DNA from: Gammaproteobacteria bacterium
Lineage (GTDB): Bacteria; Pseudomonadota; Gammaproteobacteria; Steroidobacterales; Woeseiaceae
Assembly (NCBI GenBank): GCA_029862045.1
Contig: JAOTYE010000003.1
Coordinates: forward strand, 1 to 64,000
Direction of reading: 5' to 3'
DNA length: 64,000 bases
Below are positions 27,009 through 62,015 of the stretch, one piece after another. How positions within the stretch are numbered: the stretch's first letter is position 1; each line of letters begins with the position of its first letter. The position numbers and the translations under genes were made by a program. A model generated the notes under the pieces. That model had not been told where the DNA came from, ran no database searches, and worked only from the letters and a program-made list of their open reading frames with translations.

Positions 27009-28652
27009 CTACGCATAGTGCGGATACACCGGGTGGTACATGTACTCATGAATATCGGCCATTATGTCCGCAGGTTCCTCTTTGTTCGTGAGGCCCCTGG
27101 CATACGCGATCCTGGCAACCTCTCGAGCGATCAGCGCCGAAACCTTGCGGATTTGACCCAATGGCGGATAGACGCGGCCGCGTTCGAGATCCGCTTCGGT
27201 AACCTGGTTGGCCAGCGAGTGCGCGGCGGCCAGGAACATCTCGGCCGTTACGGTGCGGGCACCGCTGACGATTACGCCCAGGCCAACGCCTGGGAAGATA
27301 TACGCGTTATTGCCCTGTCCCGGCACAAAAACCCGATTGCCGAGCTTCACCGGGTCGAACGGGCTACCGCTAGCGAAGATCGCCCGGCCGTCGCTCCAGG
27401 TATAGGCTTGCGCCGCGGTGCATTCGGCCTTCGAGGTCGGGTTCGACAACGCGAATACAATTGGGCGATCGTTAATTGTCGCCATCGCTGCAACTGCGTC
27501 TTTGGTGAAATGCCCTGGCTGGCCGGAGAGCCCGAGAATGGCGGTCGGCCGGAGGGTGTTAACCGCATCGAGAAAGTTGGCAATGTAAGGATGCTCGTGT
27601 GCATAAGGCCTCTTGTGCTCGGGTATATCTCCCCGATCCGCCACCAGAAGCCCCTTGGTGTCGACGAACCAGCACTGTTTACGGGCCTGCTCCGGAGGGA
27701 TGCCATTTTCTACCAGGGCCGCAACAAAAGTATCGGCAATGCCGATACCGGCCTCGCCGGCCCCCAGGAAGAGTATTTTCTGCTCGGACAACTTGCCGCC
27801 TGTGATGCGTAGCGCGCCGATGATTCCGGCTACAGCGACGGCCCCGGTTCCCTGGATATCGTCGTTGAAAAGGCACACCCGGTCGCGATACTTCTCGAGC
27901 AATCTAAACGCGTTAGTGTTGCCGAAGTCTTCGAGCTGAATCAGGACACCGGGGAATGCGTCGTTCACGGCAGTAATGAATTCCTCCACGAGCTCGTCGT
28001 ACTCTTCACCGCGCACGCGCCGGCGCTCGAGGCCGTTGTAGAGCGGATCGTTCAGCAACGTCTCGTTATTGGTGCCGACATCGAGCATCACCGGCATGCA
28101 GTGGGTCGGATGAATACCGGAACAGGCGGTGTAGAGGGCCAGTTTGCCGATCGGAATGCCCATACCGTCGGCGCCGAGGTCGCCGAGCCCGAGAATCCGC
28201 TCACCGTCGGTAACGACGATAATCCGCGTCTCTTTGTGTGGCCAGTTCTGCAGGTACTCCTTGATCTGACCACGGTCCTGCAATGACACATGAAATCCGC
28301 GCGGGGTTCTGAAGATATGTTGAAATTCCTGACACGCCTTGCCCACGGTCGGGGTGTAGATCAACGGCATCATTTCTTCGATGTTGTGCATCACCACGCG
28401 GTAAAACAGAGTCTCATTGCGGTCCTGCAAGGCGACCAGGTAGAGATAGCGCTCCAGGTCGGTCGGTTTCGCGCGGATATTGCCGAGTACACGTAATTCC
28501 TGTTCAGCCGGTGAGTGAACACGAGGGGGCAGCAAGCCCCGCAATTTCAGGTAATCGCGCTCGGCGTCGGTATACGCGGTGCCCTTGTTTCGCAACGGGT
28601 CATGGAGGATTTTCACGCCTCGATATAGCTCGGATGGTGAATGGCTGTTCAC
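27009..28652 (-). CDS. maeA: NAD-dependent malic enzyme (oxaloacetate-decarboxylating)
   Basis: The protein aligns by eye with E. coli MaeA over its whole length. It shows LNKG/LRNKG, ETLFYRVVMHNIEEMMPLIYTPTVG, VVTDGERILGLGDLGADGMGIPIGKLALYTACSGI, the metal-binding Q-L-E-D-F region, FNDDIQGT, and the NAD fold FLGAGEAGIGIA. It decarboxylates malate to pyruvate with NAD+, so it can feed the pyruvate:ferredoxin oxidoreductase encoded further along. I choose GTG at 28652 (GAAGG upstream) because MaeA homologues start just before this block; a TTG at 28688 in the same frame would add 12 unlikely residues. Length is 547 residues, close to the 565 of the E. coli enzyme. Confidence 0.93.
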   Translation of the reverse strand: MNSHSPSELYRGVKILHDPLRNKGTAYTDAERDYLKLRGLLPPRVHSPAEQELRVLGNIRAKPTDLERYLYLVALQDRNETLFYRVVMHNIEEMMPLIYTPTVGKACQEFQHIFRTPRGFHVSLQDRGQIKEYLQNWPHKETRIIVVTDGERILGLGDLGADGMGIPIGKLALYTACSGIHPTHCMPVMLDVGTNNETLLNDPLYNGLERRRVRGEEYDELVEEFITAVNDAFPGVLIQLEDFGNTNAFRLLEKYRDRVCLFNDDIQGTGAVAVAGIIGALRITGGKLSEQKILFLGAGEAGIGIADTFVAALVENGIPPEQARKQCWFVDTKGLLVADRGDIPEHKRPYAHEHPYIANFLDAVNTLRPTAILGLSGQPGHFTKDAVAAMATINDRPIVFALSNPTSKAECTAAQAYTWSDGRAIFASGSPFDPVKLGNRVFVPGQGNNAYIFPGVGLGVIVSGARTVTAEMFLAAAHSLANQVTEADLERGRVYPPLGQIRKVSALIAREVARIAYARGLTNKEEPADIMADIHEYMYHPVYPHYA

Positions 28653-28822
28653 GGGTTTGTGCCTTCGAATCTGGAGCCTTACTGACAAAAATACGACTCT
28701 TTCATTCGTGTTTAAATGCCGGAATTCACCTAGTTAGTATCAGGTATGGCGGGCCAGCGTCGTGCGCGATAGTATGCTCAACGCACATGCAATTCAGCAG
28801 CCGGGTAACGAGGGGCAGCAAC

Positions 28823-31940: not shown

Positions 31941-32192
31941 TCTGATACCAATGTTGTCAAGAAATACGATGTAGCTAATTGAATTAGGCGGTCAGCTCAA
32001 GCTACGACAGGTCATTTTGTGCCGGTTCTCTTGCAGCCAGTCTCCTATTCTATCGCTTTGCAGGCGCAACTGGCACGAAATACCTTCCAGCCAAAGCGAG
32101 CGCTCAACCAAAGTACATCGACTGGCAGGTCGGAACCGAATCGTTGCTACAATCGCAGGATAGCAGTTCAGAACTTACGGAAGGAGACAGCG

Positions 32193-33503
32193 ATGAGTCG
32201 AAAGCTCGTCCTCATGGGTGCTGCAGGTCGTGATTTTCATGTTTTCAACTGCTGTTATCGGGACAACCCGGAATTTGAAGTTGTTGCCTTCACAGCGGCG
32301 CAGATACCGCACATTGAAGATCGCCGCTATCCGGCCGCTCTTGCCGGCTCGTTGTACCCGGACGGCATACCGATTCGCCCGGAAGACGATCTCGACGAAG
32401 TACTGGAGGGCAACGACATCGATGAAGTCGTCTTCGCTTATTCCGATATTAGCCTCGACTACCTGGAGGAACGGCGTAAGAAAGTTGCGGCGAAGGGCAT
32501 CCGGTTTTCCGTATTCGACATCGATGCGACGATGCTGCCGTCGTCAAAGCCGGTTATTGCGATTACCGCGGTCAGGACAGGCTGTGGCAAGAGCCAGGTC
32601 TCGCGTCGAATCACACACATACTGAGGGGCCTGGGTAAGAAGATGGTGGCCATCCGGCATCCGATGCCCTATGGCGACCTCGCGCTGCAGGCGGTACAGC
32701 GCTTTGAAAACTACGAGGACCTTGAGCGGCACAATTGCACGATCGAAGAAAGAGAAGAATACGAACCGCACATAAAGAACGGTGTGGTCGTCTACGCCGG
32801 CGCCGACTATGCCGCAATACTCGAGCAAGCTGAGCAGGAGGCGGACGTCATTATCTGGGACGGTGGTAATAATGACACGCCATTTTACCAACCGGATCTG
32901 TGGATCGTGGTCGCTGATCCCCATCGAGCGGGGCATGAACTCAAGTACTTCCCCGGCACCGAGAATTTTGCACGTGCCGAACTGATCCTGATCAACAAGG
33001 TGGGTTCCGCACGGGAACAAGACATTCGGGTCGTCGAGGCGAATGCGAAGATGGTTAACCCAAGCGCCATAATCGTGCGTCGCGAGTCAACGCTGGACGT
33101 TCCGCAGCCGGAATTGATCAAGGGCAAGCGCGTGCTGGCAATCGAAGATGGTCCCACTACAACACACGGCGGTATGCCGTTCGGTGCCGGCGTGCTGGCC
33201 GCGAGAGACAACGGCGCTGCCGAAATCGTTGATCCGAGATCCTGCGCGGTCGGCGAAATTGCGGATACTTTCGAAAACTACCCTGACATCGGTGCACTTT
33301 TGCCGGCGATGGGCTATGGCGAAGCGCAGATTCGTGACCTGGAGGCGACGGTCAACGCTGTGGATTGCGACCTGGTCCTGGTGGCGACACCGATCGATCT
33401 CACACGACTTATTAAGATCGAAAAGCCGCACATGCACATTGGCTACCGTCTGTCCGCCCAAGACGGGCAGTTGGCCGAGGCCGTGAGTCGAGTGGTTTCC
33501 TGA
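32193..33503 (+). CDS. Cyclic 2,3-diphosphoglycerate synthetase-like NTPase
   Basis: The ATG at 32193 follows AAGGAGACAG. The 436-residue protein begins with a Rossmann-like domain (RKLVLMGAAGRDFHVFNCCYRDNPEFEVVAFTAAQIP). A P-loop NTPase domain comes next, with A-V-R-T-G-C-G-K-S-Q (about residues 127-136), WDGGNND, and a nucleotide-base motif INKVG. This two-domain arrangement is that of cyclic 2,3-diphosphoglycerate synthetase, known from thermophilic methanogens; bacterial homologues are annotated likewise or as 'GTPase' without proven function. The gene has its own promoter region and no pathway partners nearby. I keep the family name but not the methanogen function. Confidence 0.82.
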   Translation: MSRKLVLMGAAGRDFHVFNCCYRDNPEFEVVAFTAAQIPHIEDRRYPAALAGSLYPDGIPIRPEDDLDEVLEGNDIDEVVFAYSDISLDYLEERRKKVAAKGIRFSVFDIDATMLPSSKPVIAITAVRTGCGKSQVSRRITHILRGLGKKMVAIRHPMPYGDLALQAVQRFENYEDLERHNCTIEEREEYEPHIKNGVVVYAGADYAAILEQAEQEADVIIWDGGNNDTPFYQPDLWIVVADPHRAGHELKYFPGTENFARAELILINKVGSAREQDIRVVEANAKMVNPSAIIVRRESTLDVPQPELIKGKRVLAIEDGPTTTHGGMPFGAGVLAARDNGAAEIVDPRSCAVGEIADTFENYPDIGALLPAMGYGEAQIRDLEATVNAVDCDLVLVATPIDLTRLIKIEKPHMHIGYRLSAQDGQLAEAVSRVVS

Positions 33504-37306: not shown

Positions 37307-38170
37307 ATGCTCGTGATAACCGCTGTCGCCGCCCTCGGTGGCCTGACGTTGCTACTTGCCACTGGCCTGGTCGTGGCAAATCGTACGTTATACGTCGAAG
37401 AAGACCCGCGGTTCGATGAGGTGGAAGACATGCTACCGCACACAAACTGCGGTGCGTGCGGTTATCCGGGCTGTCGGTCGTTCGCCGAAGCGCTTGTGAA
37501 CGGTGATGTTCTGCCCGGCAAGTGCACGGTGTCGAGCGGCGATGATCGCGCTGACATAGCCGCGTATCTTGGCGTCGATGTCGGTGCGGAGGAGCGCAGG
37601 GTAGCGAGGCTGGCCTGCGCTGGCGGCAAGAATGTGGCACGAAACCACGCGCGTTATACGGGTTATCAGTCGTGTCGTTCGGCCGCACTGGTTGCCGGCG
37701 GCGGCAAAGGCTGTTTCTGGGGTTGCCTGGGCTTAGGTGATTGCGAGCGCATTTGCGATTTTGATGCGATCATAATGGACGCACAAAACCTGCCTGTCGT
37801 CATCGAGGAGCTGTGCACGGCCTGCAACGATTGCGTCGAAGTTTGTCCGAAGGATCTGTTCAGCATTCATCCGGCGAGTCACCGGCTCTGGGTTGCCTGC
37901 AAGAATCTCGAGTTTGGGGACGACATTCTCGAGGACTGTGAAGTTGGCTGCACGGCTTGTGGGCGCTGCGCAAAGGACGCGCCCGGGCTGATCAGCATGC
38001 AGGACAACCTGGCTGTAGTCGATTATGACCGAGCTCACGGGACAAGGCTGCCGATCGAGCGTTGCCCCACGGGAGCGATCGTCTGGATCGAAGAGGACGG
38101 TCATGTGATTAAAGGCGATGAGGCCAGGCCAACGTTGCGCCATTCCTCGTTGCCCGAAGCACCAACCTGA
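37307..38170 (+). CDS. rnfB: Rnf electron-transport complex subunit B
   Basis: The 287-residue protein has one N-terminal membrane helix (residues 3-24) and a [4Fe-4S] domain T-N-C-G-A-C-G-Y-P-G-C. A C-x3-C-x5-C-x3-C motif (W-G-C-L-G-L-G-D-C-E-R-I-C) and ferredoxin-like motifs C-T-A-C-N-D-C-V-E-V-C-P and C-T-A-C-G-R-C follow. This is the long RnfB type seen in Clostridia and Bacteroidetes, not the roughly 190-residue RsxB of E. coli. In the last motif the fourth Cys position is Ala (CAKDAP), so one cluster may have altered ligation. RnfB is the ferredoxin-accepting subunit. The ATG at 37307 follows TAGGGCG. It is first in a cluster and precedes the giant oxidoreductase. Confidence 0.92.
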   Translation: MLVITAVAALGGLTLLLATGLVVANRTLYVEEDPRFDEVEDMLPHTNCGACGYPGCRSFAEALVNGDVLPGKCTVSSGDDRADIAAYLGVDVGAEERRVARLACAGGKNVARNHARYTGYQSCRSAALVAGGGKGCFWGCLGLGDCERICDFDAIIMDAQNLPVVIEELCTACNDCVEVCPKDLFSIHPASHRLWVACKNLEFGDDILEDCEVGCTACGRCAKDAPGLISMQDNLAVVDYDRAHGTRLPIERCPTGAIVWIEEDGHVIKGDEARPTLRHSSLPEAPT

Positions 38171-38203
38171 TAATTGTAGACTTGCCACAAAAGAGAAGTG
38201 TTG

Positions 38204-41200
38204 ATGAAAAAGTCGAATAAGACGTTCAAGTACCCGGGAACTCCAGCCGCGATGGATGGCAATACTGCAGTCATCATGTGCGAACGCGAGTCGAGCGACG
38301 CGGCCGGCGCCTATCCCATCACGCCATCGACGCAGATGGGCGAGTACTGGGCAGAAGCCGCTGCAGCCGGGCACGTTAACGTATCGGGACGTCCGCTGAT
38401 TTTCGTCGAGCCCGAGGGTGAACATGCTGCTGCCGCAGTCACTGCGGGCATGTCGATGACGGGTCTCAGGGCCTCGAACTTCTCGTCGGGGCAGGGCATC
38501 GCCTATATGCATGAGTCATTGTATGCGGCCGTCGGCAAGCGCCTGCCATACGTGCTCAACATTGGCGCGCGCGCGATGACCAAGTCGACGCTCAACGTAC
38601 ATGCCGGCCACGACGATTATCACTGTATTGACGACACGGGTTTCTTCCAACTCTTCGCGGCCGATGCGCAGGGTGCGGCCGATCTGAATATCGTCGCGCA
38701 TCGCATCGCGGAGCTTTCCCTCACGCCAGGGGCGATCGCGCAGGACGGCTTTCTTACGACGCACCTGATTGAGTCAATCAAGGTGCCCGAGCGCGAACTC
38801 ATCGCAGAGTATCTTGGCCGTCCCGATGACATCATCGCGACGCCGACACCGGCACAACGCATCATCTACGGCGATACCCGGCGCCGCATTCCGGAACTCT
38901 GGGACGTCGACAACCCGGTCATGGCGGGTCTCGTCGAAAACCAGGATGCCTACATGCAAAGCGTGGCGGCGCAACGACCGTTCTTTTTTGATCATGTACA
39001 GGCACTCACGGATCAGGCGCTCGCGGAATTCGCCGAGCTGACCGGCCGCGACTATGCGCGAGTCATGACCTATCGGGTCGACGATGCTGATTATTTGATT
39101 GTCGGTCAGGGCAGTGTGATTCCGAGTGCCGAAGTCGTCGTCGATTATTTGCGCAAGACACGCAAGCTCAAGGTCGGCGTCGTCAATGTGACGATGTTCA
39201 GGCCGTTCCCATCCGACCTGTTGTCGCGGCTGTTGAAGGGTAGAAAAGGTGTGGTTGTCCTCGAACGGCTCGACCAGCCGCTTGCAGTTGATCTGCCACT
39301 GATACGTGAGATTCGCGCGACAATGAGCAAGTGTATGGAAAACGGTCTTGACAAAACGGACACGCCGTACCCGGAACTCGACACCTACGCAAAACTCAGC
39401 GATGCGGCGCCGCTTTATTCCGGCTCCTTCGGCATGGGCAGTCGTGACCTGCAGCCCGAGGGTCTGATTGGTGCGGTCGAGAACATGCTGCCGAAAGGTG
39501 ATCGCAAGAAGCTCTTTTACCTGTCCATCGACTTTCTTCGAAAAACGCCCTTTACGCCGAAGCAGGAGATCTACCAGCAGACGATTGAGGAGTCGTATCC
39601 GCAGGTACGCGAGCTTGCCGTACACGGCAGCGAGAATCCGAACCTGATGCCCGACGGCAGTATTACGGTACGCTTGCATTCGATCGGGGGCTGGGGCGCG
39701 ATCACGACTGGCAAGAACCTGGCGATGACGCTGTACGACCTGCTCGGTTTCAATATCAAAGCAAATCCGAAGTACGGCTCGGAAAAGAAAGGCCAGCCAA
39801 CGACGTTTTATCTCTCGGCGGCACCCGAACCGATCAAGGTCAATTGCGAGTACTTTTACGTCGATGTGGTGTTGTCACCGGATCCGAATGTTTTCAATCA
39901 CACGAACGCACTCGCCGGGCTCAAGGAAGGCGGTATCTTCATCATTCAGAGTGATCTCGGTGAGGCAGACAAAGTCTGGGAGTCCATCCCGATCGCGTTC
40001 CAGCAGATTATCGTCGAGAAGAATGTTCGCATGTTTTTCCTCGACGCTTTTCGCATTGCCCGTGACGAAGCGACTGACGCCGATCTGCAATTGCGCATGC
40101 AGGGCGTCGCCTTCCAGGGTGCATTTTTCGCCTGTTCGCCGGTGCTCGAACAAAAAGGTCTCGATGACGCCACGCTGCTCGAAGCGATCCGCGATCAATT
40201 GCAATACAAGTTCGGCGACAAGGGTGCGCGCGTGGTCGAAGACAACATGCGCGTCGTCAAGCGCGGTTTCGATGAGGTACACGAGATTACCGAGAAACCG
40301 TTCACGCTCAAGAACGGCGGCACGTCAGCAATACCACCGGAGCCGGCCGTACCGATCATGGGCAAACGCTTGCCACAGAGTGAGGCACCAGCAACGGATG
40401 TGCACCGCTTCTGGGAGCAGACCGGTAACTTCTATGCTCGCGGCATGGGTTCGGACAACCTGACCGACCCGTTCATCGGTCTCGGCGTCATGCCAGCCGT
40501 GACATCACTGTTCCGTGACATGACCGGCATTCGCTTCGAGCATCCCGAGTTTATTGCGGAAAACTGCACCGCGTGCGGCGACTGCTATACGGTTTGTCCC
40601 GATACGGCAATCCCCGGGCTCGTCAATGAGGTGGGCCAGGTACTCGACACTGTCGTCAAGCGTGTCAAGAAAAAGGGCAACACGGTTGAGTTCCTGCCGC
40701 GCGCCGTGCGGCAGATGGAACGCCATTTGCGTAGCGAGTTGAATGCGGCCAGCGAGGACGATGCGGTTGCTGGCCTGATCGACCATGCGATCAGGAAAAC
40801 CGTTGCGGAGAGCGACGAGCAAAATCGCAGTGCGCTCGAGGAAGAGTTCGGACTCTTTGCCGAGGAACTCGATGGTTTTCAGTTCGCTCTGTCGCGTCCT
40901 TATTACACACTACCGGAGAAGAAAAAGGCCGGTGATGGCGGATTGTTTTCGATCACTATCGACCCGTATACGTGTAAAGGCTGCATGGAGTGTGTGAAGG
41001 TCTGCGAAGACGACGCACTCAAGCCCGTTACGCAGACACCCGATTCGATCAAGAAGCTGCGTGAACACTGGGAATTCTGGCTGGATCTGCCCAACACGCC
41101 GAAAAAATACATTCGTGTTGACGATCTCGAGGAACGCATCGGTGCACTCGAGACCATCCTGCTCGACAAGGACAACTATATGGCCTTTGCGAGTGGCGAC

Positions 41201-43150
41201 GGTGCTTGCCTGGGCTGCGCCGAGAAAACCGTGATGCATCTTTTCGTTGCAACGGTTGAAGCATTGATGCAGCCGCGTATCGCGAATCACGTTGCACACA
41301 TCGAGGATCTGATTGGACAACTAAAGCAGTCGGTGCAGGCACAGCTGGTCGGCGAAATAGACCTCAGCGACACGACCGAGATCGCGAAAGCTGTCGAGGG
41401 CATCGGGGACAAGGACGTAACGCTTGCCGGTATTGCCGATCGCATCGAACACGACAAGGGCTCGCAGCCGATCGACCCCGAATGGCTCAAGCGCATGACC
41501 GGACTCATCGGCCAGCTTGAGACGCTCAAGTGGCGCTACCTGGAGGGTACGACCGGGCAGGGCAGGGCGCGTATGGGTATGACGAATGCGACCGGCTGTA
41601 CCTCTGTCTGGGGCAGCACCTATCCATTCAACCCGTACCCCTTCCCCTGGGCCAATCATCTGTTCCAGGATGCGCCGTCACTCGCGATAGGCATTTTCGA
41701 GGGCCACATGGTCAAAATGGCGGAGGGCTTTAAGGCGATTCGCATTGCCGAACTCGAACTCGCCGGCGAGTACAAGCCGTCAGAGCATGACGAGTTCTTT
41801 ACCTACTTTGACTGGCAAGCGTTCAACGACGACGAGTTCAAACTTTGTCCGCCCGTCGTTGCGGTCGGTGGCGACGGCGCGATGTACGACATCGGCTTTC
41901 AAAACCTGTCACGCCTGATGATGACAGGAATGCCTATCAAAGTGCTGGTCGTCGACACGCAGGTCTACTCCAACACGGGTGGTCAGGCGTGCACATCGGG
42001 TTTCATTGGCCAGGTCTCGGATATGGCCCAGTACGGCAAGGTCACCAAGGGTAAAGAGGAAGTGCGCAAGGAAATCGGGCTCATCGGCATGGCGCATCGC
42101 ACAACCTACGTCCTGCAAAGCACGATCTCGAACGCGAGCCACATGATCGAGGGATTCATCGAGGGATTGCTCACGCGACGTCCGGCGCTATTCAACCTGT
42201 ATACCTCGTGCCAGCCCGAACACGGAATAGGTGACGACATGAGTGAACAGCAGGCACGGCTTGCCGTTGAGTCACGCGCCTATCCGCTGTTCAAGTACGA
42301 CCCGGACAAAGGCGTGACTCCCGCCGAGTGCTTCGACCTGTCGGGTAATCCGGGGATGGATGTCGAGTGGCCCAGCTATACGCTGACCTATCGGGATGGC
42401 GCTCGCGAAGCAACGATGGAACTGCCGATGACATTCGCGGACTTCGCGATGACTGAGGTGCGCTTCCGCAAGCACTTCCGCATGGCGCCGCCGGACACCT
42501 GGAACGACAAGATGGTGCCGCTGCATGAGTTTCTCGAGATGGATCCGGACGATCGCGACGGGCGTTTTCCGTACATCTGGGCCGTCGATCGCAAGAACCA
42601 TCTGAGCCGGCTGCTTGTCGATGAGGCAATGGTGCTCTCTTGCGAGGATCGTCGGGATTTCTGGACGATGCTTCGCGCGCTGGCAGGCCTCGACAAGAAA
42701 GAGCAGCCGATTCAGGAAATCGAGGGCCGCGTACGCAAGGAGATCGTGACGAAGATCGCACAGGGTCTCGCACAGTTTGCAAGCGGTGAGGGTGCTGCAC
42801 TGCCGTCGATCGGCGAGGTATTGACGAGCGCTGCGGAGCCTGCGCAGCAGACGGCACCGGCAGCGCCAGCGCAGCAGGCGCAACCTGCCGCGGACGGCGA
42901 GTACATGGCACCGTGGCTCGATATCGACGAGTGCACCGCATGTGATGAATGTATCAAGATCAACTCGGCCGTTTTCGAATACAACGACAGCAAGAAGGCG
43001 TTCATCAAGAATGCCGACGCCGGACCTTACAGTGATCTCGTCAAAGCGGCCGAGAAATGTACGGCCGAGGTCATTCATCCGGGGCTGCCTCGCGACCGCT
43101 CGGCGAGCGATATCAAGAAGTGGATCGCGCGCGGCGAACGGTTCAACTAG
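38204..43150 (+). CDS. nifJ: Pyruvate:ferredoxin (2-oxoacid) oxidoreductase with C-terminal fused ferredoxin
   Basis: This 1648-residue protein is a NifJ-type homodimeric PFOR. The PYR domain with Y-P-I-T-P-S at residue 37 comes first, then the gamma domain. Two [4Fe-4S] motifs follow (C-T-A-C-G-D-C-Y-T-V-C-P at 788, C-K-G-C-M-E-C-V-K-V-C from 924). Then come G-D-G-A-C-L-G-C-A-E (Cys at 1002 and 1005), N-A-T-G-C and the TPP site G-D-G-A at 1223. Ordinary NifJ is about 1170-1200 residues. The extra length is partly a roughly 120-residue insertion after Cys1005 and partly a C-terminal ferredoxin (C-x2-C-x2-C from 1577, last Cys 1619) behind an Ala/Pro/Gln linker. It oxidises a 2-oxoacid to acyl-CoA, reducing ferredoxin. 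ATG 38204 follows AGAGAAG. No nif genes are present, so it is not about nitrogen fixation. Confidence 0.92.
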   Translation: MKKSNKTFKYPGTPAAMDGNTAVIMCERESSDAAGAYPITPSTQMGEYWAEAAAAGHVNVSGRPLIFVEPEGEHAAAAVTAGMSMTGLRASNFSSGQGIAYMHESLYAAVGKRLPYVLNIGARAMTKSTLNVHAGHDDYHCIDDTGFFQLFAADAQGAADLNIVAHRIAELSLTPGAIAQDGFLTTHLIESIKVPERELIAEYLGRPDDIIATPTPAQRIIYGDTRRRIPELWDVDNPVMAGLVENQDAYMQSVAAQRPFFFDHVQALTDQALAEFAELTGRDYARVMTYRVDDADYLIVGQGSVIPSAEVVVDYLRKTRKLKVGVVNVTMFRPFPSDLLSRLLKGRKGVVVLERLDQPLAVDLPLIREIRATMSKCMENGLDKTDTPYPELDTYAKLSDAAPLYSGSFGMGSRDLQPEGLIGAVENMLPKGDRKKLFYLSIDFLRKTPFTPKQEIYQQTIEESYPQVRELAVHGSENPNLMPDGSITVRLHSIGGWGAITTGKNLAMTLYDLLGFNIKANPKYGSEKKGQPTTFYLSAAPEPIKVNCEYFYVDVVLSPDPNVFNHTNALAGLKEGGIFIIQSDLGEADKVWESIPIAFQQIIVEKNVRMFFLDAFRIARDEATDADLQLRMQGVAFQGAFFACSPVLEQKGLDDATLLEAIRDQLQYKFGDKGARVVEDNMRVVKRGFDEVHEITEKPFTLKNGGTSAIPPEPAVPIMGKRLPQSEAPATDVHRFWEQTGNFYARGMGSDNLTDPFIGLGVMPAVTSLFRDMTGIRFEHPEFIAENCTACGDCYTVCPDTAIPGLVNEVGQVLDTVVKRVKKKGNTVEFLPRAVRQMERHLRSELNAASEDDAVAGLIDHAIRKTVAESDEQNRSALEEEFGLFAEELDGFQFALSRPYYTLPEKKKAGDGGLFSITIDPYTCKGCMECVKVCEDDALKPVTQTPDSIKKLREHWEFWLDLPNTPKKYIRVDDLEERIGALETILLDKDNYMAFASGDGACLGCAEKTVMHLFVATVEALMQPRIANHVAHIEDLIGQLKQSVQAQLVGEIDLSDTTEIAKAVEGIGDKDVTLAGIADRIEHDKGSQPIDPEWLKRMTGLIGQLETLKWRYLEGTTGQGRARMGMTNATGCTSVWGSTYPFNPYPFPWANHLFQDAPSLAIGIFEGHMVKMAEGFKAIRIAELELAGEYKPSEHDEFFTYFDWQAFNDDEFKLCPPVVAVGGDGAMYDIGFQNLSRLMMTGMPIKVLVVDTQVYSNTGGQACTSGFIGQVSDMAQYGKVTKGKEEVRKEIGLIGMAHRTTYVLQSTISNASHMIEGFIEGLLTRRPALFNLYTSCQPEHGIGDDMSEQQARLAVESRAYPLFKYDPDKGVTPAECFDLSGNPGMDVEWPSYTLTYRDGAREATMELPMTFADFAMTEVRFRKHFRMAPPDTWNDKMVPLHEFLEMDPDDRDGRFPYIWAVDRKNHLSRLLVDEAMVLSCEDRRDFWTMLRALAGLDKKEQPIQEIEGRVRKEIVTKIAQGLAQFASGEGAALPSIGEVLTSAAEPAQQTAPAAPAQQAQPAADGEYMAPWLDIDECTACDECIKINSAVFEYNDSKKAFIKNADAGPYSDLVKAAEKCTAEVIHPGLPRDRSASDIKKWIARGERFN

Positions 43151-43156
43151 GCGGGC

Positions 43157-44494
43157 ATGTCGAACTTACTGCATCGTTATCCGAGTTTTCGTAACGGCGT
43201 GCACCCGCCGGAATCGAAAGCGGATACGCACGCACTGAAGATCAGGCAGTTCCCGTTTTCGCCCGTGCTTGTCATTCCATTGTCCCAGCACATCGGTGCG
43301 CCCGCCGTCGCGGTTGTGCGTGAAGGTGAAGAAGTAGCACGCGGACAATTGCTTGCAAGGTCCGACGGGTTCATGTCGGTTCCGCAGCATGCACCGGCGT
43401 CCGGCATCGTGCAGCGCATCGACTTTGTGCCCAGTATTACGGGAAAGATGGTGCCGGGCATCTACCTGAAGCCACATCCCGGCTCTTCACAGGAGGTCGC
43501 CGAAGGGGAACCGTGTGATCTGGGCACAGCGAGCCCGGATGACATCATTGCGGCGGTGCAGTCGGCCGGCATCGTAGGCCTGGGCGGTGCGGCATTTCCG
43601 ACGCATGTAAAACTCAAGCCACCTGAAGGCAAGACAGTCGAGACGCTGATTATTAACGGTATTGAGTGTGAGCCATACCTGACAACCGACCATCGTGTGA
43701 TGCTTGAGCACACGGCCGATATCTATATGGGAATACGTTACCTGTTGAAGGCCACCACGGCACAGCGCGCGATAATCGGCGTTGAAGCGAACAAGCTTGA
43801 TGCGGCGGACGCCCTGCGCGCGGCTGCACCTGACGACATGCCTGTCACGACCGGCGTCGTCGAAGTGAAATATCCGCAGGGCGCGGAGAAGATGCTGATC
43901 ACCGCGTTGCTGGGCAAGGAAGTCCCTTCAGGTGGACTGCCCGTGGATGTCGGCACCGTAGTTGTCAATGTCGCGACGGCAGCCGAGATCGGCAGGCTGT
44001 TGCCGCATGGGCGCGGCATTCAGGAACGCGTTGTTACAATCACCGGTCCCGCCGTTGGCCGCAAAGGCAACTACCGCATTCCGATCGGAACGCCATTGCG
44101 ATTCGCGCTCGAGCAGGTGGATGTGAGCGACAATGTCAGTCGTGTCTTCCTGGGTGGGCCGATGATGGGACAGGCTCTTTCGAGCCTCGACATACCGATT
44201 ACCAAGGGAACCTCCGGTTTCGTGGCGTTCACGAGCGCCGAGACTGCGGCTGAGGAGCCGGAGTATCCCTGCATTCGTTGCGCCTATTGCGTTGATGCCT
44301 GCCCGATCTACCTCAACCCGTCGCAACTTGGAATTCTCGCAAAGAACGAAGAGTTCGATCGCATGGCGGACGATCACAGCCTCATGGACTGTTTCGAGTG
44401 TGGTGCATGCTCCTATGTTTGCCCGTCTCACATTCCCCTTGTGCAACGTTTCCGCGACGCCAAGGCCATCGTCCGCGAGAGGCAGGCAGCCTGA
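43157..44494 (+). CDS. rnfC: Rnf electron-transport complex subunit C
   Basis: The 445-residue protein has the RnfC order: an N-terminal barrel-sandwich region (VREGEEVARGQLLARSDGFMSVPQHAPASG), the Rossmann-like NADH/FMN-binding segment G-L-G-G-A-A-F-P-T-H, then the SLBB region. At the C-terminus are two [4Fe-4S] motifs, C-I-R-C-A-Y-C-V-D-A-C-P and C-F-E-C-G-A-C-S-Y-V-C-P. It is the NADH-interacting peripheral subunit of the complex, without the long Lys-rich tail of enteric RsxC. It starts 6 bases after the PFOR stop and its stop overlaps the rnfD start (TGATG). Confidence 0.95.
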   Translation: MSNLLHRYPSFRNGVHPPESKADTHALKIRQFPFSPVLVIPLSQHIGAPAVAVVREGEEVARGQLLARSDGFMSVPQHAPASGIVQRIDFVPSITGKMVPGIYLKPHPGSSQEVAEGEPCDLGTASPDDIIAAVQSAGIVGLGGAAFPTHVKLKPPEGKTVETLIINGIECEPYLTTDHRVMLEHTADIYMGIRYLLKATTAQRAIIGVEANKLDAADALRAAAPDDMPVTTGVVEVKYPQGAEKMLITALLGKEVPSGGLPVDVGTVVVNVATAAEIGRLLPHGRGIQERVVTITGPAVGRKGNYRIPIGTPLRFALEQVDVSDNVSRVFLGGPMMGQALSSLDIPITKGTSGFVAFTSAETAAEEPEYPCIRCAYCVDACPIYLNPSQLGILAKNEEFDRMADDHSLMDCFECGACSYVCPSHIPLVQRFRDAKAIVRERQAA

Positions 44495-45516
44495 TGTCTG
44501 CGAAAAACAAAACGCTCGAGATCGATACTTCACCGCATATTGTGAGCGGTGCCAGCGTCGAAGTCATCATGCGCAACGTTGTTTTCGCGCTGGTACCCGT
44601 CTGTATTTTTTCGGTTTACGTCTTTGGACTTACGGCGCTCATTACACTGACGGCCGCGACGCTAAGTTGTCTCTTAACTGAACACGTCCTGTGTCGTTGG
44701 CGTGGCGACCGGTCGACTCTCGGCGACTGGTCGGTTGCAATAACCGGAATTCTCTATGGCCTGACATTGCCTCCGGCGCTCCCGGTGTGGATGGTTGTCC
44801 TGGGTGGCGTCGTTGCCGTCGGTGTCGGCAAATTCCTGTTTGGTGGCCTGGGCCATAACGCCTTCAATCCGGCCCTGATAGGTCGCGCTTTCCTGCAGGC
44901 GGCCTTCCCGGTCTCAATGACCACATGGTATCCGGCGTTAGGTGCCGAGCGATTTGCCGTCCTGCCGCCGTCGACATTCACATTGCCGTTCGCATCACCG
45001 GTTTACGACTCGATCAGTGGCGCGACGCCGCTTGCCGTAATCAAATTCGATGGCGATATAACGGCTGCTACGGATCTGCTTATGGGCCTGACGAGTGGAT
45101 CGACAGGAGAAACGAGTGGATTGTTGATTCTTGCAGGTGGCTTATATCTGATTGCTCGCAAGATGATGAACTGGCGCATACCCGTTGCGATCTTTGCGAC
45201 AGTATTTGCCCTTAGCGGCGTTTTCTACCTGATCGATCCGGCTGCCTATCCAGGTCCGTTGTTCATGTTGTTTTCTGGCGGGCTGATGCTTGGCGCCGTT
45301 TTCATGGCTACCGATATGGTCGCCTCACCGATGACGAGCTTTGGCTGTGTGCTCTATGGTGTGTTGATTGGTGCGCTCGTCGTTGTAATTCGCCTGTGGG
45401 GCGGGCTGCCCGAAGGGGTCATGTACGCGATCCTGTTTGCGAATGCTGTATCGCCGCATATCGATAACCTGATCCAACCGCGTGTCTATGGTACGACCGA
45501 GCGGGGCGCATCGTGA
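44494..45516 (+). CDS. rnfD: Rnf electron-transport complex subunit D
   Basis: The 340-residue integral membrane protein has about 8-10 hydrophobic helices, the G-L-G-H-N-A-F-N-P-A-L-I-G-R-A-F motif typical of RnfD/NqrB, and S-G-A-T-P-L near residue 172. In that motif the Thr carries covalently bound FMN. Its ATG overlaps the rnfC stop, and its stop overlaps the rnfG start (GTGA). RnfD forms the membrane core with the ion pathway. An upstream in-frame start at 44398 would lie inside rnfC and is rejected. Confidence 0.95.
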   Translation: MSAKNKTLEIDTSPHIVSGASVEVIMRNVVFALVPVCIFSVYVFGLTALITLTAATLSCLLTEHVLCRWRGDRSTLGDWSVAITGILYGLTLPPALPVWMVVLGGVVAVGVGKFLFGGLGHNAFNPALIGRAFLQAAFPVSMTTWYPALGAERFAVLPPSTFTLPFASPVYDSISGATPLAVIKFDGDITAATDLLMGLTSGSTGETSGLLILAGGLYLIARKMMNWRIPVAIFATVFALSGVFYLIDPAAYPGPLFMLFSGGLMLGAVFMATDMVASPMTSFGCVLYGVLIGALVVVIRLWGGLPEGVMYAILFANAVSPHIDNLIQPRVYGTTERGAS

Positions 45517-46190
45517 ACGTGCCACATGTAACACCCACCTGGCCGATGTACCGGACACTCGTCGGCGTCGGCATGTTCTGCGGCCTGTTGATCGCGATCG
45601 TCTTCCAGGGCACGCTGCCGGTCATCGAACGCAACCGTGCCGAAGCGCTCGAGCGTGCCGTGTTCGCCGTGCTACCGGCGGCAAGTCAGCGCACGACCTA
45701 TGCACTGACCCCAGAGGGCGAGTTTGTATCGGATACCGACGCGGTTGGCCAACGTGTCCATGCGGGTTTCGATAGCGATGGGCGGCTCATCGGTGTTGCG
45801 ATCGAGGCCAGCGGCATGGGTTACGCGGATACGATCACGGTGCTTTACGGCTACGCGCCAGAACAGGAAGCGATTGTCGGCATCCGCGTGCTGACGAGTA
45901 AGGAAACCCCCGGACTTGGCGACAAGATCGAGAAAGACGCGGTGTTCCTCGAGAATTTCGTGGCACTGGATGTGCGCCTCGATCCGTCTGGCGAGACGTT
46001 GCAACATCGAATCGTGACGGTCAAGCGAGGACAGAAGACCCAGCCGTGGCAAATTGACGGCATCACCGGAGCGACAATCTCGGCCAAAGCTATCGGCGAG
46101 ATCCTCGCCACGAGTTCCGAACGCTGGGTACCGATCATTAACGAGCAGCTCGAGCAGCTGGTTGCCGGAGAATCTGATGACGAGTCGTAA
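45513..46190 (+). CDS. rnfG: Rnf electron-transport complex subunit G (covalent FMN)
   Basis: Translation starts at GTG 45513, overlapping the rnfD stop. The 225-residue protein has a single N-terminal membrane helix (MFCGLLIAIVFQGTLPVI) and a periplasmic FMN-binding domain. It shows V-L-T-S-K-E-T-P-G-L-G-D-K-I, the usual RnfG/NqrC signature, and D-G-I-T-G-A-T-I-S. The Thr of G-A-T-I-S is the flavin attachment site, normally modified by ApbE. No apbE is seen in this window, so the flavin transferase must be elsewhere. It overlaps rnfE by 14 bases. Confidence 0.95.
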   Translation: MNVPHVTPTWPMYRTLVGVGMFCGLLIAIVFQGTLPVIERNRAEALERAVFAVLPAASQRTTYALTPEGEFVSDTDAVGQRVHAGFDSDGRLIGVAIEASGMGYADTITVLYGYAPEQEAIVGIRVLTSKETPGLGDKIEKDAVFLENFVALDVRLDPSGETLQHRIVTVKRGQKTQPWQIDGITGATISAKAIGEILATSSERWVPIINEQLEQLVAGESDDES

Positions 46191-46827
46191 TCGGAAGGCC
46201 GTGATTGGAACCGATGAGTTCATCAAAGGAATCTGGCGCGAGAATCCGGTGTTTGTGCAGGTGCTCGGCATGTGTCCGGTACTGGCCGTGAGTAATACGG
46301 CGATCAATGCGCTCGCGATGGGGCTCGCGACCGCATTCGTGATGCTGATGTCGAACACGCTCGTGTCCACACTGCGCAACTTCATTCCCAAGCAGGTGCG
46401 CATCGCGACCTACATTCTGATCATCGCGACGTTCGTCACGATCGTCGACTACGCGATCGAGGCGATCAGCCTGGACCTGCACAAGTCGCTCGGAGCGTTT
46501 ATTTCCCTGATCGTCGTCAATTGCCTGATACTGGGCCGCGCCGAGGCATTCGCGTCCAAGCATCGTGTCAGGCACGCGGTACTTGACGCTCTCGGCATGG
46601 GCATCGGGTTTACGCTGGCACTGCTTTGTCTAGGCGGCGTTCGTGAGCTGCTCGGCGATGGCGCATTGTTTGGCGTGGCGGTGTTCCCGGATGGCTTCGA
46701 ACCGTGGATCGTCATGATCCTGCCGAGTGGGGGCTTCTTTACGCTGGCGGCCTGGTTGTTGCTGATCAATCATATGCAGCAACGCAAAGAGGCGAAAACC
46801 GGGCGTGTACAAGAGGTGCCGAGATGA
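46177..46827 (+). CDS. rnfE: Rnf electron-transport complex subunit E
   Basis: The 216-residue polytopic protein has six helices. It shows FIKGIWRENPVFVQVLGMCPVLAVSN, V-N-C-L-I-L-G-R-A-E-A-F-A and GMGIGFTLALLCLGGVREL. The half-channel inverted-repeat signature with Cys in M-C-P and N-C-L is typical of RnfE/NqrD, where cysteines of RnfA and RnfE coordinate an iron centre across the membrane. The ATG at 46177 follows GGAG and lies inside the rnfG end, implying translational coupling. Its stop overlaps rnfA (ATGA). Confidence 0.95.
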   Translation: MTSRNRKAVIGTDEFIKGIWRENPVFVQVLGMCPVLAVSNTAINALAMGLATAFVMLMSNTLVSTLRNFIPKQVRIATYILIIATFVTIVDYAIEAISLDLHKSLGAFISLIVVNCLILGRAEAFASKHRVRHAVLDALGMGIGFTLALLCLGGVRELLGDGALFGVAVFPDGFEPWIVMILPSGGFFTLAAWLLLINHMQQRKEAKTGRVQEVPR

Positions 46828-47405
46828 ACGAACAGACTCTCTGGTCGGTTTTTGTCAACGCTGCGCTCGTCAATAATTTCGTATTGGCGTACTTTCTCGG
46901 GATTTGTCCTTTTCTGGGCGTGTCGGCGAAAATCGGTACAGCGACTAGAATGGGTGGCGCTGTGATGTTCGTCATGCTCGTAAGCTCGGTGTGCGCGTAT
47001 GCCATCCATCACCTTTTGATCTTGATAGGCGTACCATTCCTCGAGTTGATCGCGTTTATTGCGGTTATCGCATCGACAGTACAACTCGTGGAGATGTTCA
47101 TTAAGAAGATGAGTCCAACGCTGTTTCGTGCACTGGGCATCTTTCTGCCGCTCATTACAACGAACTGCGCGATTCTGGGCCTCGCGCTTTTTCAGACGAA
47201 CCGCGGCTATGGTCTCTTGCAGGCGATTGTCTATGCGCTCGGCGCAGGCGCCGGTTTTACATTGGCGCTCGTGTTGATGGCTGGCATCCGCGAGAAGCTG
47301 GAACTCGCGACGATGCCAGACGTCGTCACGGGCACGGCCAGCGCACTGATCGTTGCCGGCATTTTGTCGCTGACGTTCATGGGCTTCGCGGGCCTGGGAG
47401 CGTAA
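46824..47405 (+). CDS. rnfA: Rnf electron-transport complex subunit A
   Basis: The 193-residue membrane protein has six helices and the RnfA/NqrE signatures N-F-V-L-A-Y-F-L-G-I-C-P-F-L-G-V-S and T-T-N-C-A-I-L-G-L-A. The cysteines in I-C-P and N-C-A pair with those of RnfE for the transmembrane iron site. The gene completes an rnfC-D-G-E-A order, the arrangement found in Clostridia, in contrast to the enteric A-B-C-D-G-E order. It ends two bases before the small NqrM-like gene. Confidence 0.95.
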   Translation: MNEQTLWSVFVNAALVNNFVLAYFLGICPFLGVSAKIGTATRMGGAVMFVMLVSSVCAYAIHHLLILIGVPFLELIAFIAVIASTVQLVEMFIKKMSPTLFRALGIFLPLITTNCAILGLALFQTNRGYGLLQAIVYALGAGAGFTLALVLMAGIREKLELATMPDVVTGTASALIVAGILSLTFMGFAGLGA

Positions 47406-47407
47406 CG

Positions 47408-47617
47408 ATGTTAGCCGACTTCCTGCTCGCACTACTCCTGCCGCCAATCCTGTTACTCGGCTGGGTTGCAGTGCAGAACGCATGGCGAAAGCAGTTTCGT
47501 ACGCCTGGCGACGAGGCAGACGTCCTCGCTGTGCGGGGCGATTGTGGTCGCTGCGGATGCGCGAGCCCCTGCGAACGAAGCGATGACCAAACCGAAATCC
47601 GAACGAGGAGTCCCTGA
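47408..47617 (+). CDS. Small NqrM-like membrane Cys protein (Rnf maturation candidate)
   Basis: This 69-residue protein has one N-terminal membrane helix (FLLALLLPPILLLGWVAV), a basic flank and the cluster D-C-G-R-C-G-C-A-S-P-C. This architecture (single helix followed by four closely spaced cysteines with C-x-C-x-x-P-C) is that of NqrM/DUF539, the factor needed to insert the membrane iron centre of Na+-NQR. Since NqrD/NqrE and RnfA/RnfE share that iron site, a protein with the same architecture placed 2 bases after rnfA and 2 bases before the FNR gene is a good candidate for Rnf iron delivery. The assignment rests on architecture and context; sequence identity to NqrM itself was not measured. 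Confidence 0.72.
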   Translation: MLADFLLALLLPPILLLGWVAVQNAWRKQFRTPGDEADVLAVRGDCGRCGCASPCERSDDQTEIRTRSP

Positions 47618-47619
47618 CG

Positions 47620-48480
47620 ATGAAGCTCGACGATTACAACAAGGAAAACCAATTCGAGGCGGCAGTGCTTTCGAGCGAGCGCATCACCCCTGAGGATGCC
47701 GATGTCGAGATTCGTGAGCTCGTACTCGAGGTCGACCGGGCGGATTTCGACTACTCGGCCGGCCAGAGCATCGGCGTACTAACGCCTGGTCCGCACGATC
47801 TTAGTCATGATTATCACTTCCGCCTGTACACGGTGGCTGACACGCTGTCACGCTCTGATAAGGGCAGGCCACGGATCACGATCGCGGTGCGGCGTTGCAC
47901 TTACATCGACGACTACAGCGGTGAGCGCTTCAAGGGCGTCAGCTCCAATTATCTTTGTGATCTCAAGCAAGGTGACAAGTTGCTGATAACCGGGCCGTAT
48001 GGCTTCGCGTTCGAGGTACCGGAGGACAAGGATGCAAACCTGGTTCTGATCGGTGCAGGCACAGGCATTGCGCCGTTTCGCGCGTTCGTGAAGCACATCT
48101 ACAACGATATTCGTGACTGGAAGGGCAAGGTGCGTCTCTTCTATGGCGCGCATACCGGGCTCGAGCTCATTTACATGAACGAGTATCGCGATGACTTCGC
48201 GCAATACTACGACCAGGAAACGTTTGAGGCATTCAGTGCGCTGTCACCGCGGCCGAACTGGGCCGATCCGATTGCCTGGGACTACTGCCTCGAGGGCCGC
48301 TCGGAAGAGATTCTGGAAATGCTCGACGACCCGAAGACCCACATCTACGTCGCCGGGCTGGAGGAGGTTCGCGATGAACTGGACGATGTGTTCTCGCGAT
48401 TGACGGGCTCGGAAAAACGTTGGCAACGGCGCCGCGCGGAGCTGGTTGCCGGCGGCCGATGGACCGAGCTGTTGTATTGA
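47620..48480 (+). CDS. Ferredoxin-NADP+ reductase, plant type
   Basis: The 286-residue protein has the FAD-binding motif R-L-Y-T-V-A, the G-A-G-T-G-I-A-P-F-R nucleotide-binding loop and a C-terminal aromatic Tyr that would stack on the flavin. It also has YGAHTGLELIYMNEYR and a long YIDDYSGERFKGVSSNYLCDL insertion. It exchanges electrons between ferredoxin (or flavodoxin) and NADP(H) in the cytoplasm. The gene ends the Rnf/PFOR cluster, two bases after the NqrM-like gene, with a GAGGAG ribosome-binding site inside that gene's end. With PFOR and Rnf it makes a local set of all three ferredoxin-coupling enzymes. Confidence 0.88.
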   Translation: MKLDDYNKENQFEAAVLSSERITPEDADVEIRELVLEVDRADFDYSAGQSIGVLTPGPHDLSHDYHFRLYTVADTLSRSDKGRPRITIAVRRCTYIDDYSGERFKGVSSNYLCDLKQGDKLLITGPYGFAFEVPEDKDANLVLIGAGTGIAPFRAFVKHIYNDIRDWKGKVRLFYGAHTGLELIYMNEYRDDFAQYYDQETFEAFSALSPRPNWADPIAWDYCLEGRSEEILEMLDDPKTHIYVAGLEEVRDELDDVFSRLTGSEKRWQRRRAELVAGGRWTELLY

Positions 48481-62006: not shown

Positions 62007-62015
62007 GTTGATCTC

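What the first reader, a model, noticed from the sequence alone, without database searches (positions are those of the whole stretch)
37307..48480. A complete ferredoxin hub: Rnf with a giant PFOR inside the gene order, plus FNR
Seen in the sequence: rnfB, a 1648-residue 2-oxoacid:ferredoxin oxidoreductase, rnfC-D-G-E-A, an NqrM-like protein and plant-type FNR run in one direction with overlaps or gaps of a few bases. Known: Rnf couples ferredoxin to NAD(H) with ion transport, PFOR reduces ferredoxin from pyruvate, FNR links ferredoxin to NADP(H). Inference: the locus encodes one electron-routing module able to conserve energy from 2-oxoacids, or in reverse to drive ferredoxin reduction for reductive carboxylation. 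Insertion of PFOR between rnfB and rnfC, plus the clostridial CDGEA order and a long RnfB, is unlike enteric rsxABCDGE. This is the strongest candidate for an undescribed coupled system in the window.
Basis: partly seen in the sequence, partly recalled or inferred. Interest (0 to 1): 0.8.

Follow-up and report, generated by a model that had tools for sequence, protein, structure and literature searches.

The report
Pyruvate enzyme wired into ion pump
A row of genes, kept together in bacteria of several phyla, appears to attach an outsized pyruvate-processing enzyme with its own built-in electron wire to an ion-pumping membrane complex, which would let the cell trade energy between pyruvate and its membrane.

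Summary
In detail: rnfB, a 1648-aa PFOR, rnfC-D-G-E-A, a 69-aa Cys protein and FNR run on one strand (37307-48480) with gaps of at most 33 nt and several overlaps. The linkage is not chance: of 72 scanned loci with at least 500 nt after the giant PFOR, rnfC follows in 70, in bacteria of several phyla. RnfC of 32 giant-PFOR loci is one clade (99/98), apart from the host's second Rnf.

The giant PFOR keeps every catalytic and cluster residue tested, adds about 430 residues and ends in a tethered [4Fe-4S] ferredoxin; all 16 cluster Cys are invariant in 100 sequences. Best reading: a dedicated pyruvate-Rnf module with its own ferredoxin, not an open hub. Sister operons hold KorAB plus two PFOR-derived proteins that lost catalysis but kept Fe-S clusters, as expected if the scaffold is a relay onto Rnf.

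Weak points: direction is open (the host has PDH and isocitrate lyase), docking is inferred, FNR is dispensable, "NqrM" fails profile tests, no structure could be predicted. Ten searches of open-licence papers showed no description.

The parts
37307..38170 (+). rnfB, long polyferredoxin type, 287 aa
   Evidence: TIGR01944 110.2 bits over cut-off 68.7; 20 Cys, each kept in at least 99% of 82 homologues; nearest solved chain A. woodii 9eri_B
38204..43150 (+). giant PFOR, 1648 aa: POR_N, PFOR_II, POR gamma, two Fer4 motifs, proximal-cluster Cys, TPP domain, C-terminal tethered ferredoxin
   Evidence: Pfam domains; catalytic, TPP and 12 cluster residues as in three NifJ enzymes, about 434 aa of extra segments; all 16 cluster Cys invariant in the 100 of 107 sequences that were full enough to align
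42932..43060 (+). C-terminal ferredoxin cluster ligands of the giant PFOR (Cys 1579, 1582, 1585, 1621, counted from the GTG at 38198)
   Evidence: PF13370 Fer4_13 at residues 1575-1627; ferredoxin I 1dax match; absent in three NifJ
43157..44494 (+). rnfC, 445 aa, with GLGGAAFPTH (NADH/FMN site, meaning recalled) and two Fer4 clusters
   Evidence: TIGR01945 496.9 bits over 245.95; one clade with the other giant-PFOR RnfC, 99/98; motif kept
44494..45516 (+). rnfD, 340 aa
   Evidence: TIGR01946 326.2 bits over 207.05; SGAT motif, in 46 of 79 homologues
45513..46190 (+). rnfG, 225 aa, GTG start
   Evidence: TIGR01947 94.4 bits, just under cut-off 102; FMN_bind; TGAT motif, TGAT or SGAT in 76 of 77
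46177..46827 (+). rnfE, 216 aa
   Evidence: TIGR01948 246.3 bits over 213.4; membrane GxCP motif in 76 of 76
46824..47405 (+). rnfA, 193 aa
   Evidence: TIGR01943 234.3 bits over 229.3; TNC motif in 74 of 74
47408..47617 (+). small protein, 69 aa: N-terminal hydrophobic segment, then W..VQ..W...F and C..C.C...C
   Evidence: A small Cys ORF lies between rnfA and FNR in 46 of 61 loci, by a mechanical pick in which at least L012 and L021 do not show the motif; invariant W, Q, W, D, L, R and four Cys in 10 chosen and aligned; hydropathy; no PF04400 match
47620..48480 (+). FNR, 286 aa, plant/cyanobacterial-type ferredoxin-NADP reductase relative
   Evidence: nearest solved chains are FNRs, 8hfq_m E 2.8e-39; present in 54 of 56 scan loci with 7.5 kb of room, missing in several class-sample loci

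Best explanation
The operon encodes a dedicated pyruvate:NAD+ ion pump. Shown: the enzyme keeps the PFOR active-site, TPP and three internal [4Fe-4S] cluster residues and carries a fourth cluster site on a C-terminal ferredoxin; it is inherited with its own Rnf lineage. Inferred: pyruvate is oxidised to acetyl-CoA and CO2; electrons run through the internal clusters to the tethered ferredoxin, which hands them directly to RnfB rather than to a free ferredoxin pool; Rnf then passes them to NAD+ while moving Na+ or H+ out. The small Cys protein probably serves assembly of the intramembrane Fe-S site, as NqrM does for NQR. FNR, where present, taps the same electrons for NADP(H). The system is reversible in principle. 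I commit to the oxidative, ion-pumping direction under oxygen limitation, at about 60:40 over the reductive one, because the cell keeps PDH for full aeration and because low-potential electrons on a tether should leak less to oxygen (both reasons are inference).
For: Operon spacing. rnfC next to the giant PFOR in 70 of 72 loci; rnfB up- or downstream in 55 of 56 and FNR in 54 of 56 with at least 7.5 kb of room. RnfC of 32 giant-PFOR loci is one clade, 99/98, separate from 16 other RnfC, including the host's second copy, and from 5 sister-operon RnfC. The methanotroph copy (L028) sits with Bacteroidota in both the RnfC tree and the PFOR tree, so the two genes seem to have travelled together. 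All 16 cluster Cys invariant in 100 giant PFORs. T42, E75, R125, GGDG and SNTGG as in NifJ. In 13 of 14 named giant-PFOR genomes the operon's RnfC is the only one over the cut-off. Sister operons: in 16 of 16 A-proteins (4 of them read only in part) the eight Fer4 Cys stay while the four proximal Cys and the TPP motif are gone; 14 of 15 B-type proteins keep the tethered-ferredoxin Cys and none keeps the TPP motif. rnfC follows the A gene in all 16 loci, after about 2.2 kb in three, and KorB is present in 14 of them (the other two loci are too short to tell). A PFOR scaffold kept beside Rnf after losing its catalysis is what a docking and relay role predicts.
Against: No structure could be predicted, so docking is inferred from genes alone. 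The host has aceE PDH, so the enzyme is not needed for ordinary pyruvate oxidation; 11 of 14 named genomes have PDH E1-alpha over the cut-off. The giant PFOR scores 395.9 bits on the NifJ equivalog against a cut-off of 911.35, so pyruvate as substrate is inference. Two scan loci (L023, L043) and one class-sample locus (L131) have no rnfC next. The correlation of distances (Mantel r 0.86-0.93 with RnfB, RnfC and FNR, 59 loci) would also follow from shared ancestry. The two trees disagree on the sister proteins: outside the giant group by RnfC, but beside the gammaproteobacterial giants by PFOR, on long branches and by the quick method. A B-type protein also occurs without Rnf genes in the 19 kb read (L183). 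RnfD's SGAT motif is not universal (46 of 79).
Confidence: 0.5

Rival explanations
1. Same complex, opposite direction: NADH and the membrane gradient drive Rnf backwards, the tethered ferredoxin is reduced, and the enzyme works as pyruvate synthase (acetyl-CoA + CO2 to pyruvate), an anaplerotic carboxylase.
For: PDH already covers oxidation. Isocitrate lyase is over the cut-off in only 2 of 14 named genomes. Rnf is described as running backwards in Azotobacter (PMC12174285, passages). In the sulfur-oxidising symbiont Kentron, which has PDH, PFOR, Rnf and Nqr, PFOR is read as a highly expressed pyruvate synthase (PMC6593406, passages). Two Bacteroidota operons put PFOR and KorAB, the two ferredoxin-dependent carboxylases of the reductive TCA cycle, beside one Rnf.
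Against: The host has isocitrate lyase, over the cut-off in 41 of 60 genomes, host included; Polaribacter (G428) has a weaker, longer lyase-like hit that may be another subtype. ATP citrate lyase was not searched. The reverse reaction needs a high membrane potential, which is least available when oxygen is low (inference).
Confidence: 0.3
2. Co-regulation only: PFOR, Rnf and FNR share a promoter and a soluble ferredoxin pool; there is no physical complex, and the C-terminal ferredoxin domain is an internal relay or stabiliser.
For: Rnf is described as taking electrons from ferredoxin at RnfB (PMC4014512, passages). FNR is in the operon and would need a ferredoxin. Gene neighbourhood alone cannot show contact.
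Against: All four tethered Cys are invariant in 100 sequences. The sister operons keep dead PFOR scaffolds and the tethered ferredoxin beside Rnf. RnfC has its own clade.
Confidence: 0.3
3. The substrate is not pyruvate but another small 2-oxoacid.
For: Only 27-29% identity to three NifJ enzymes; NifJ equivalog cut-off not reached; the segment after R125 differs (HAGHDDYHxxDD in place of GDHxDVMAxRQ in the sequences shown).
Against: T42, E75, R125 and the TPP loop are as in NifJ; the best solved relatives are three pyruvate enzymes.
Confidence: 0.15
4. Chance neighbourhood or assembly artefact.
For: Most records are metagenome bins.
Against: Same gene order in named records not marked as metagenome bins in Pseudomonadota, Bacteroidota and Planctomycetota and on two megaplasmid records; 70 of 72 loci.
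Confidence: 0.01

Closest known systems
Rnf complex of Acetobacterium woodii and Clostridium tetanomorphum (9eri, 7zc6)
   Same: Homologous subunits (A, B and G compared with these chains) and long RnfB
   Different: No PFOR gene inside the operon in the passages seen (PMC4014512, PMC12174285); ferredoxin is free
NifJ-type PFOR (Moorella 6cin, Desulfovibrio africanus 1b0p; species recalled)
   Same: Domains, catalytic residues, TPP site and three cluster sites (sequence match to these chains; residues against three other NifJ)
   Different: About 434 extra residues and a C-terminal ferredoxin; 27-29% identity to the three NifJ; below the NifJ equivalog cut-off
KorAB + split dead-PFOR + Rnf operons (described here)
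   Same: Rnf with PFOR-derived proteins, rnfB between them, rnfC after
   Different: Catalysis left to KorAB; the PFOR-derived pair lost the TPP and proximal-cluster residues
rnf genes clustered with reductive TCA genes in tubeworm symbionts (PMC6315080, passages)
   Same: Rnf beside ferredoxin-dependent 2-oxoacid chemistry
   Different: korABCD with Hdr-Flx and pntAB; the words PFOR and pyruvate were not found in its main text
E. coli rsxABCDGE
   Same: Homologous six subunits (NCBIfam Rsx models hit)
   Different: Short RnfB and no PFOR or FNR (recalled); A-first order, as PMC4014512 states for most proteobacteria

Membership tests
Rnf complex | all six subunits A, B, C, D, E, G encoded together | tested here: met
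   RnfG just under its curated cut-off
Rnf complex | covalent-FMN motifs (S/T)GAT in RnfD and RnfG | tested here: met
   window RnfD SGAT, RnfG TGAT; across loci 46 of 79 RnfD have SGAT and 9 TGAT, 76 of 77 RnfG have TGAT or SGAT; motif meaning recalled
Rnf complex | paired membrane Cys in RnfA and RnfE | tested here: met
   RnfE GxCP 76 of 76 and xNC 75 of 76; RnfA GxCPF 72 of 74 and TNC 74 of 74; meaning recalled
Rnf complex | ferredoxin:NAD+ activity with ion transport | not testable with these tools
   needs membranes
NifJ-type pyruvate:ferredoxin oxidoreductase (TIGR02176 equivalog) | curated score of 911.35 bits | tested here: not met
   395.9 bits
NifJ-type pyruvate:ferredoxin oxidoreductase (TIGR02176 equivalog) | catalytic Thr, Glu, Arg, TPP motifs and 12 cluster Cys | tested here: met
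   same residues as three NifJ enzymes at every site tested; roles of the residues recalled
NifJ-type pyruvate:ferredoxin oxidoreductase (TIGR02176 equivalog) | pyruvate as substrate | not testable with these tools
   inferred from residues
NqrM (PF04400) | profile match | tested here: not met
   no hit for the window protein; the 8 NqrM loci found all show GSCGG, this one does not; profile comparison aligned 12 columns only
plant-type ferredoxin-NADP reductase | FAD and NAD(P) domains of the FNR type | tested here: met
   PF00175 over its cut-off, PF00970 at 20.8 against 21.1; solved FNR relatives
plant-type ferredoxin-NADP reductase | preference for NADP(H) | tested here: inconclusive
   best NCBIfam hits are PetH and BoxA, all below cut-off

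The most novel reading that the evidence does not exclude
Rnf is a platform on which 2-oxoacid oxidoreductases are permanently mounted. The giant PFOR and, in sister operons, KorAB through a catalytically dead PFOR scaffold, form a membrane-bound 2-oxoacid:NAD+ ion pump with no free ferredoxin. In Marivirga and Algoriphagus one Rnf may serve both enzymes, so the two ferredoxin-level steps of the TCA cycle would be coupled to one ion pump, reversibly, in bacteria that also carry PDH.
Probability: 0.4. Interest if true: 0.88.

Novelty: new variant of a known kind. Interest (0 to 1): 0.72.

Why it matters
PFOR and Rnf are textbook parts of anaerobic metabolism, usually joined by a free ferredoxin. 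Here they are inherited as one unit across several phyla, including cultured Bacteroidota (aerobes, from recall) that also have PDH. If they form one machine, pyruvate oxidation could pump ions directly, or a membrane gradient could drive carboxylation, without a leaky ferredoxin pool. The dead-PFOR sister operons add a testable case of an enzyme turned into an electron adapter. Cultured hosts exist, so deletion and membrane assays are within reach.

Tried and rejected
Chance neighbourhood: rejected by the census and class sample. Of the 20 class loci, L136 has only 184 nt downstream and was set aside; L142 and L146 hold only part of the PFOR, so the script did not score them, but one search shows rnfC next in both; L131 is the exception.

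NqrM identity: tried with Pfam, NCBIfam, the whole genome, NqrM loci of other genomes and a profile comparison; not supported. PDH or isocitrate lyase as arguments for direction: tested, mixed result; in the three named genomes without PDH E1-alpha over the cut-off the AceE type was not searched. Promoters and terminators: 2 promoter-like sites against 5.7 expected and 14 terminator-like sites against 10.8 expected, nothing to build on. PFORs of relatives L111-L115 were truncated and gave no comparison; replaced by three annotated NifJ genes. Mantel correlations were judged weak because relatedness alone could give them. Random sampling of Bacteroidia found the giant form in only 2 of 295 genomes, both already known and one of them the centre of the sample, so it is patchy there.

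Literature: ten searches in open-licence papers only; the listings and the passages seen held no description of PFOR inside rnf. The Biegel 2011 review on Rnf was not held. In PMC11636981 (passages) a 'PFOR-like' gene and korAB(3) of the Riftia symbiont fall together in expression; whether these belong to a sister operon was not checked.

After the filing check I recounted: RnfC single-copy genomes are 13 of 14 (not 12), the 60 'relatives' include the host, and rnfC was looked for again behind L182 and L188.


Full report
WHAT IS THERE. Gaps from rnfB to FNR are 33, 6, -1, -4, -14, -4, 2 and 2 nt. RnfB, C, D, E and A pass the NCBIfam subfamily cut-offs; RnfG is just below (94.4 against 102). 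RnfB is of the long clostridial kind. RnfA and RnfE carry their membrane Cys motifs, and RnfG and RnfD in the window carry TGAT and SGAT.

IS THE LINK REAL? Of these, 72 have at least 500 nt after the PFOR; rnfC is next in 70. The exceptions are L023, where FNR follows directly, and L043. Of 56 loci with at least 7.5 kb downstream, 55 have rnfB (before the PFOR in 25, after it in 30) and 54 have FNR. Two orders exist: B-PFOR-C-D-G-E-A-(small)-FNR, for example in Gammaproteobacteria, Myxococcota, Planctomycetota, Calditrichota and Acidobacteriota, and PFOR-C-D-G-E-A-(small)-FNR-B in the Bacteroidota loci long enough to show it, in L028 and L034 (Gammaproteobacteria) and in L062 (labelled Rickettsiales). 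Phylum labels of metagenome bins may be wrong, but named records not marked as bins cover Pseudomonadota, Bacteroidota and Planctomycetota, and megaplasmid records of Persicobacter and Gemmatirosa carry it too, the latter without an FNR hit in the stretch read.

A second, less selective sample: 369 Gammaproteobacteria drawn evenly, searched with the last 251 residues, most of which NifJ enzymes lack: 29 match, the host included. I fetched 20 loci, all the matches above 190 bits apart from the window's own. One (L136) has no room downstream; of the other 19, rnfC is next in 18 (two of these hold only part of the PFOR and were not scored), and L131 is the exception. FNR is missing from several of these with about 7 kb of room (for example L135, L139, L140, L143, L144), so FNR is accessory. 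In Bacteroidia the system is rare: 2 of 295 sampled genomes have the giant form, both already known.

ONE LINEAGE. In a tree of 53 RnfC, 32 chosen from giant-PFOR loci form one side of a branch (99/98; one change in 99% of bootstrap trees), apart from 16 others, among them the host's second RnfC on contig C3, and from 5 of sister operons. In both the RnfC tree and the PFOR tree (quick method) the methanotroph copy lies with Bacteroidota, which suggests that the genes moved together. In 13 of 14 named giant-PFOR genomes the operon's RnfC is the only one over the family cut-off; the exception is the methanotroph, with three. Distances of PFOR correlate with those of RnfC, RnfB and FNR (r 0.93, 0.86, 0.89; 59 loci that have all eight genes), but shared ancestry would do this too.

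THE ENZYME. Against three annotated NifJ enzymes the giant PFOR keeps the catalytic Thr, Glu and Arg (roles recalled), the TPP motifs GGDG and SNTGG, and 12 cluster Cys, at 27-29% identity, with about 434 extra residues in eight segments of at least 15; the last holds a ferredoxin. Sixteen cluster Cys are invariant in 100 giant PFORs, out of 107 found, the others being partial. It falls well below the NifJ equivalog cut-off, so it is a separate branch of the PFOR superfamily, and pyruvate is the likely but unproven substrate.

THE SISTER OPERONS. Some genomes of the host's genus and class carry KorA-KorB-B-rnfB-A-rnfC-D-G-E-A, where B (about 820 aa) and A (about 1500 aa) are PFOR-derived. In 16 of 16 A-proteins examined (four read only in part) the eight Fer4 Cys remain, while all four proximal-cluster Cys and the TPP motif are lost; in 14 of 15 B-type proteins the four tethered-ferredoxin Cys remain and in none the TPP motif (a 17th row, L183, was left out of the A count as a B-type match). 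The exception, L177, has its ferredoxin piece in another frame. rnfC follows A in all 16 loci, after about 2.2 kb in L177, L182 and L188; KorB was found in 14 of the 16, the other two loci being too short. The KorB printed has an intact GDG...N motif. So the PFOR fold was kept beside Rnf after catalysis passed, it seems, to KorAB. Marivirga and Algoriphagus have PFOR-rnfCDGEA-small-FNR-rnfB-KorA-KorB-B in a row, one RnfC over the cut-off, and no A-protein in the stretches read (the Marivirga B is shorter and its match stops before the ferredoxin). None of the 6 matches in the host is of this kind. The RnfC tree puts the sister operons outside the giant group, the PFOR tree puts A-proteins beside the gammaproteobacterial giants on long branches; their origin is open.

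HOW IT PROBABLY WORKS. Pyruvate is oxidised at the TPP site; electrons pass the three internal clusters to the tethered ferredoxin and from there to RnfB; Rnf reduces NAD+ and pumps ions. Shown: genes, residues, linkage, lineage. Inferred: docking, direct transfer, direction, ion. The sister operons are the strongest indirect support for docking, since a dead enzyme seems to be kept as scaffold and wire.

DIRECTION. All 60 genomes searched, host included, have an aceE match, 56 over the cut-off, and the host's is over it; 11 of 14 named genomes have PDH E1-alpha over the cut-off. The host has isocitrate lyase, which is over the cut-off in only 2 of 14 named genomes. Published work on a sulfur-oxidising symbiont reads PFOR as pyruvate synthase beside PDH (PMC6593406, passages). 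I put oxidative use under low oxygen at about 60:40.

THE SMALL PROTEIN. It has an N-terminal hydrophobic stretch and W..VQ..W...F, D.LA.R and C..C.C...C. A small Cys ORF sits in this place in 46 of 61 loci; at least two of those picks (L012, L021) do not show the motif. It does not match NqrM, though its place and build suggest a similar task.

NOVELTY. Ten searches of an open-licence library and passages of eleven papers showed no description of a PFOR gene inside rnf. A 2014 analysis of rnf and nqr gene orders has no occurrence of the word pyruvate in its main text (PMC4014512). Subscription papers were not searched. I rate it a new variant of a known kind: known parts, joined in an arrangement not found described, with a sister system that uses dead copies.

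Noticed in passing
L121, L122, L123, L177-L182, L184-L188 (also L198, L199): Operons KorA-KorB-B-rnfB-A-rnfCDGEA; in L121-L123, L177-L182 and L184-L188 the A and B proteins were checked: PFOR-derived, TPP and proximal-cluster residues lost, Fe-S clusters kept (L177, L182 and L188 have genes in pieces). L198 and L199 were seen by gene order only.
   Followed up: yes
L194 7355-18692; L196 696-11696: Algoriphagus and Marivirga place KorAB and a B-type protein directly after the giant-PFOR rnf operon, with one RnfC over the cut-off in the genome.
   Followed up: partly
window 47408-47617: Small 69-aa Cys protein with its own conserved motif, no Pfam or NCBIfam match and not NqrM by profile.
   Followed up: yes
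window 32019-33503; L030, L040, L045: A gene of about 440 aa with no Pfam match over cut-off and no NCBIfam match (cyclic 2,3-diphosphoglycerate synthetase-like, from recall) lies near the operon in the window and in three related loci.
   Followed up: partly
L036 431-802 and 20 other loci: A protein of about 123 aa, weakly HEPN-like (below cut-off), clusters in 21 loci; in L036 and L194 it ends shortly before the giant PFOR.
   Followed up: partly
L131, L043: Giant PFOR without rnfC next to it; L131 begins inside the PFOR at a contig start, L043 stands alone with 4.9 kb downstream.
   Followed up: partly
G000 contig C3 (aceE 224515, rnfC 239315): The host's second, canonical rnfC lies about 12 kb from aceE on the same contig.
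   Followed up: no
L183: A B-type protein with several ferredoxin repeats beside KorB, with no Rnf genes in the 19 kb read.
   Followed up: no
L168: A second RnfC-like gene of Planctomycetes bacterium CA13 has an in-frame stop.
   Followed up: no
window 60228-63947 and 27009-28688: Fatty-acid oxidation genes (acyl-CoA dehydrogenase, 3-hydroxyacyl-CoA dehydrogenase/enoyl-CoA hydratase) and a malic enzyme lie in the same window.
   Followed up: no
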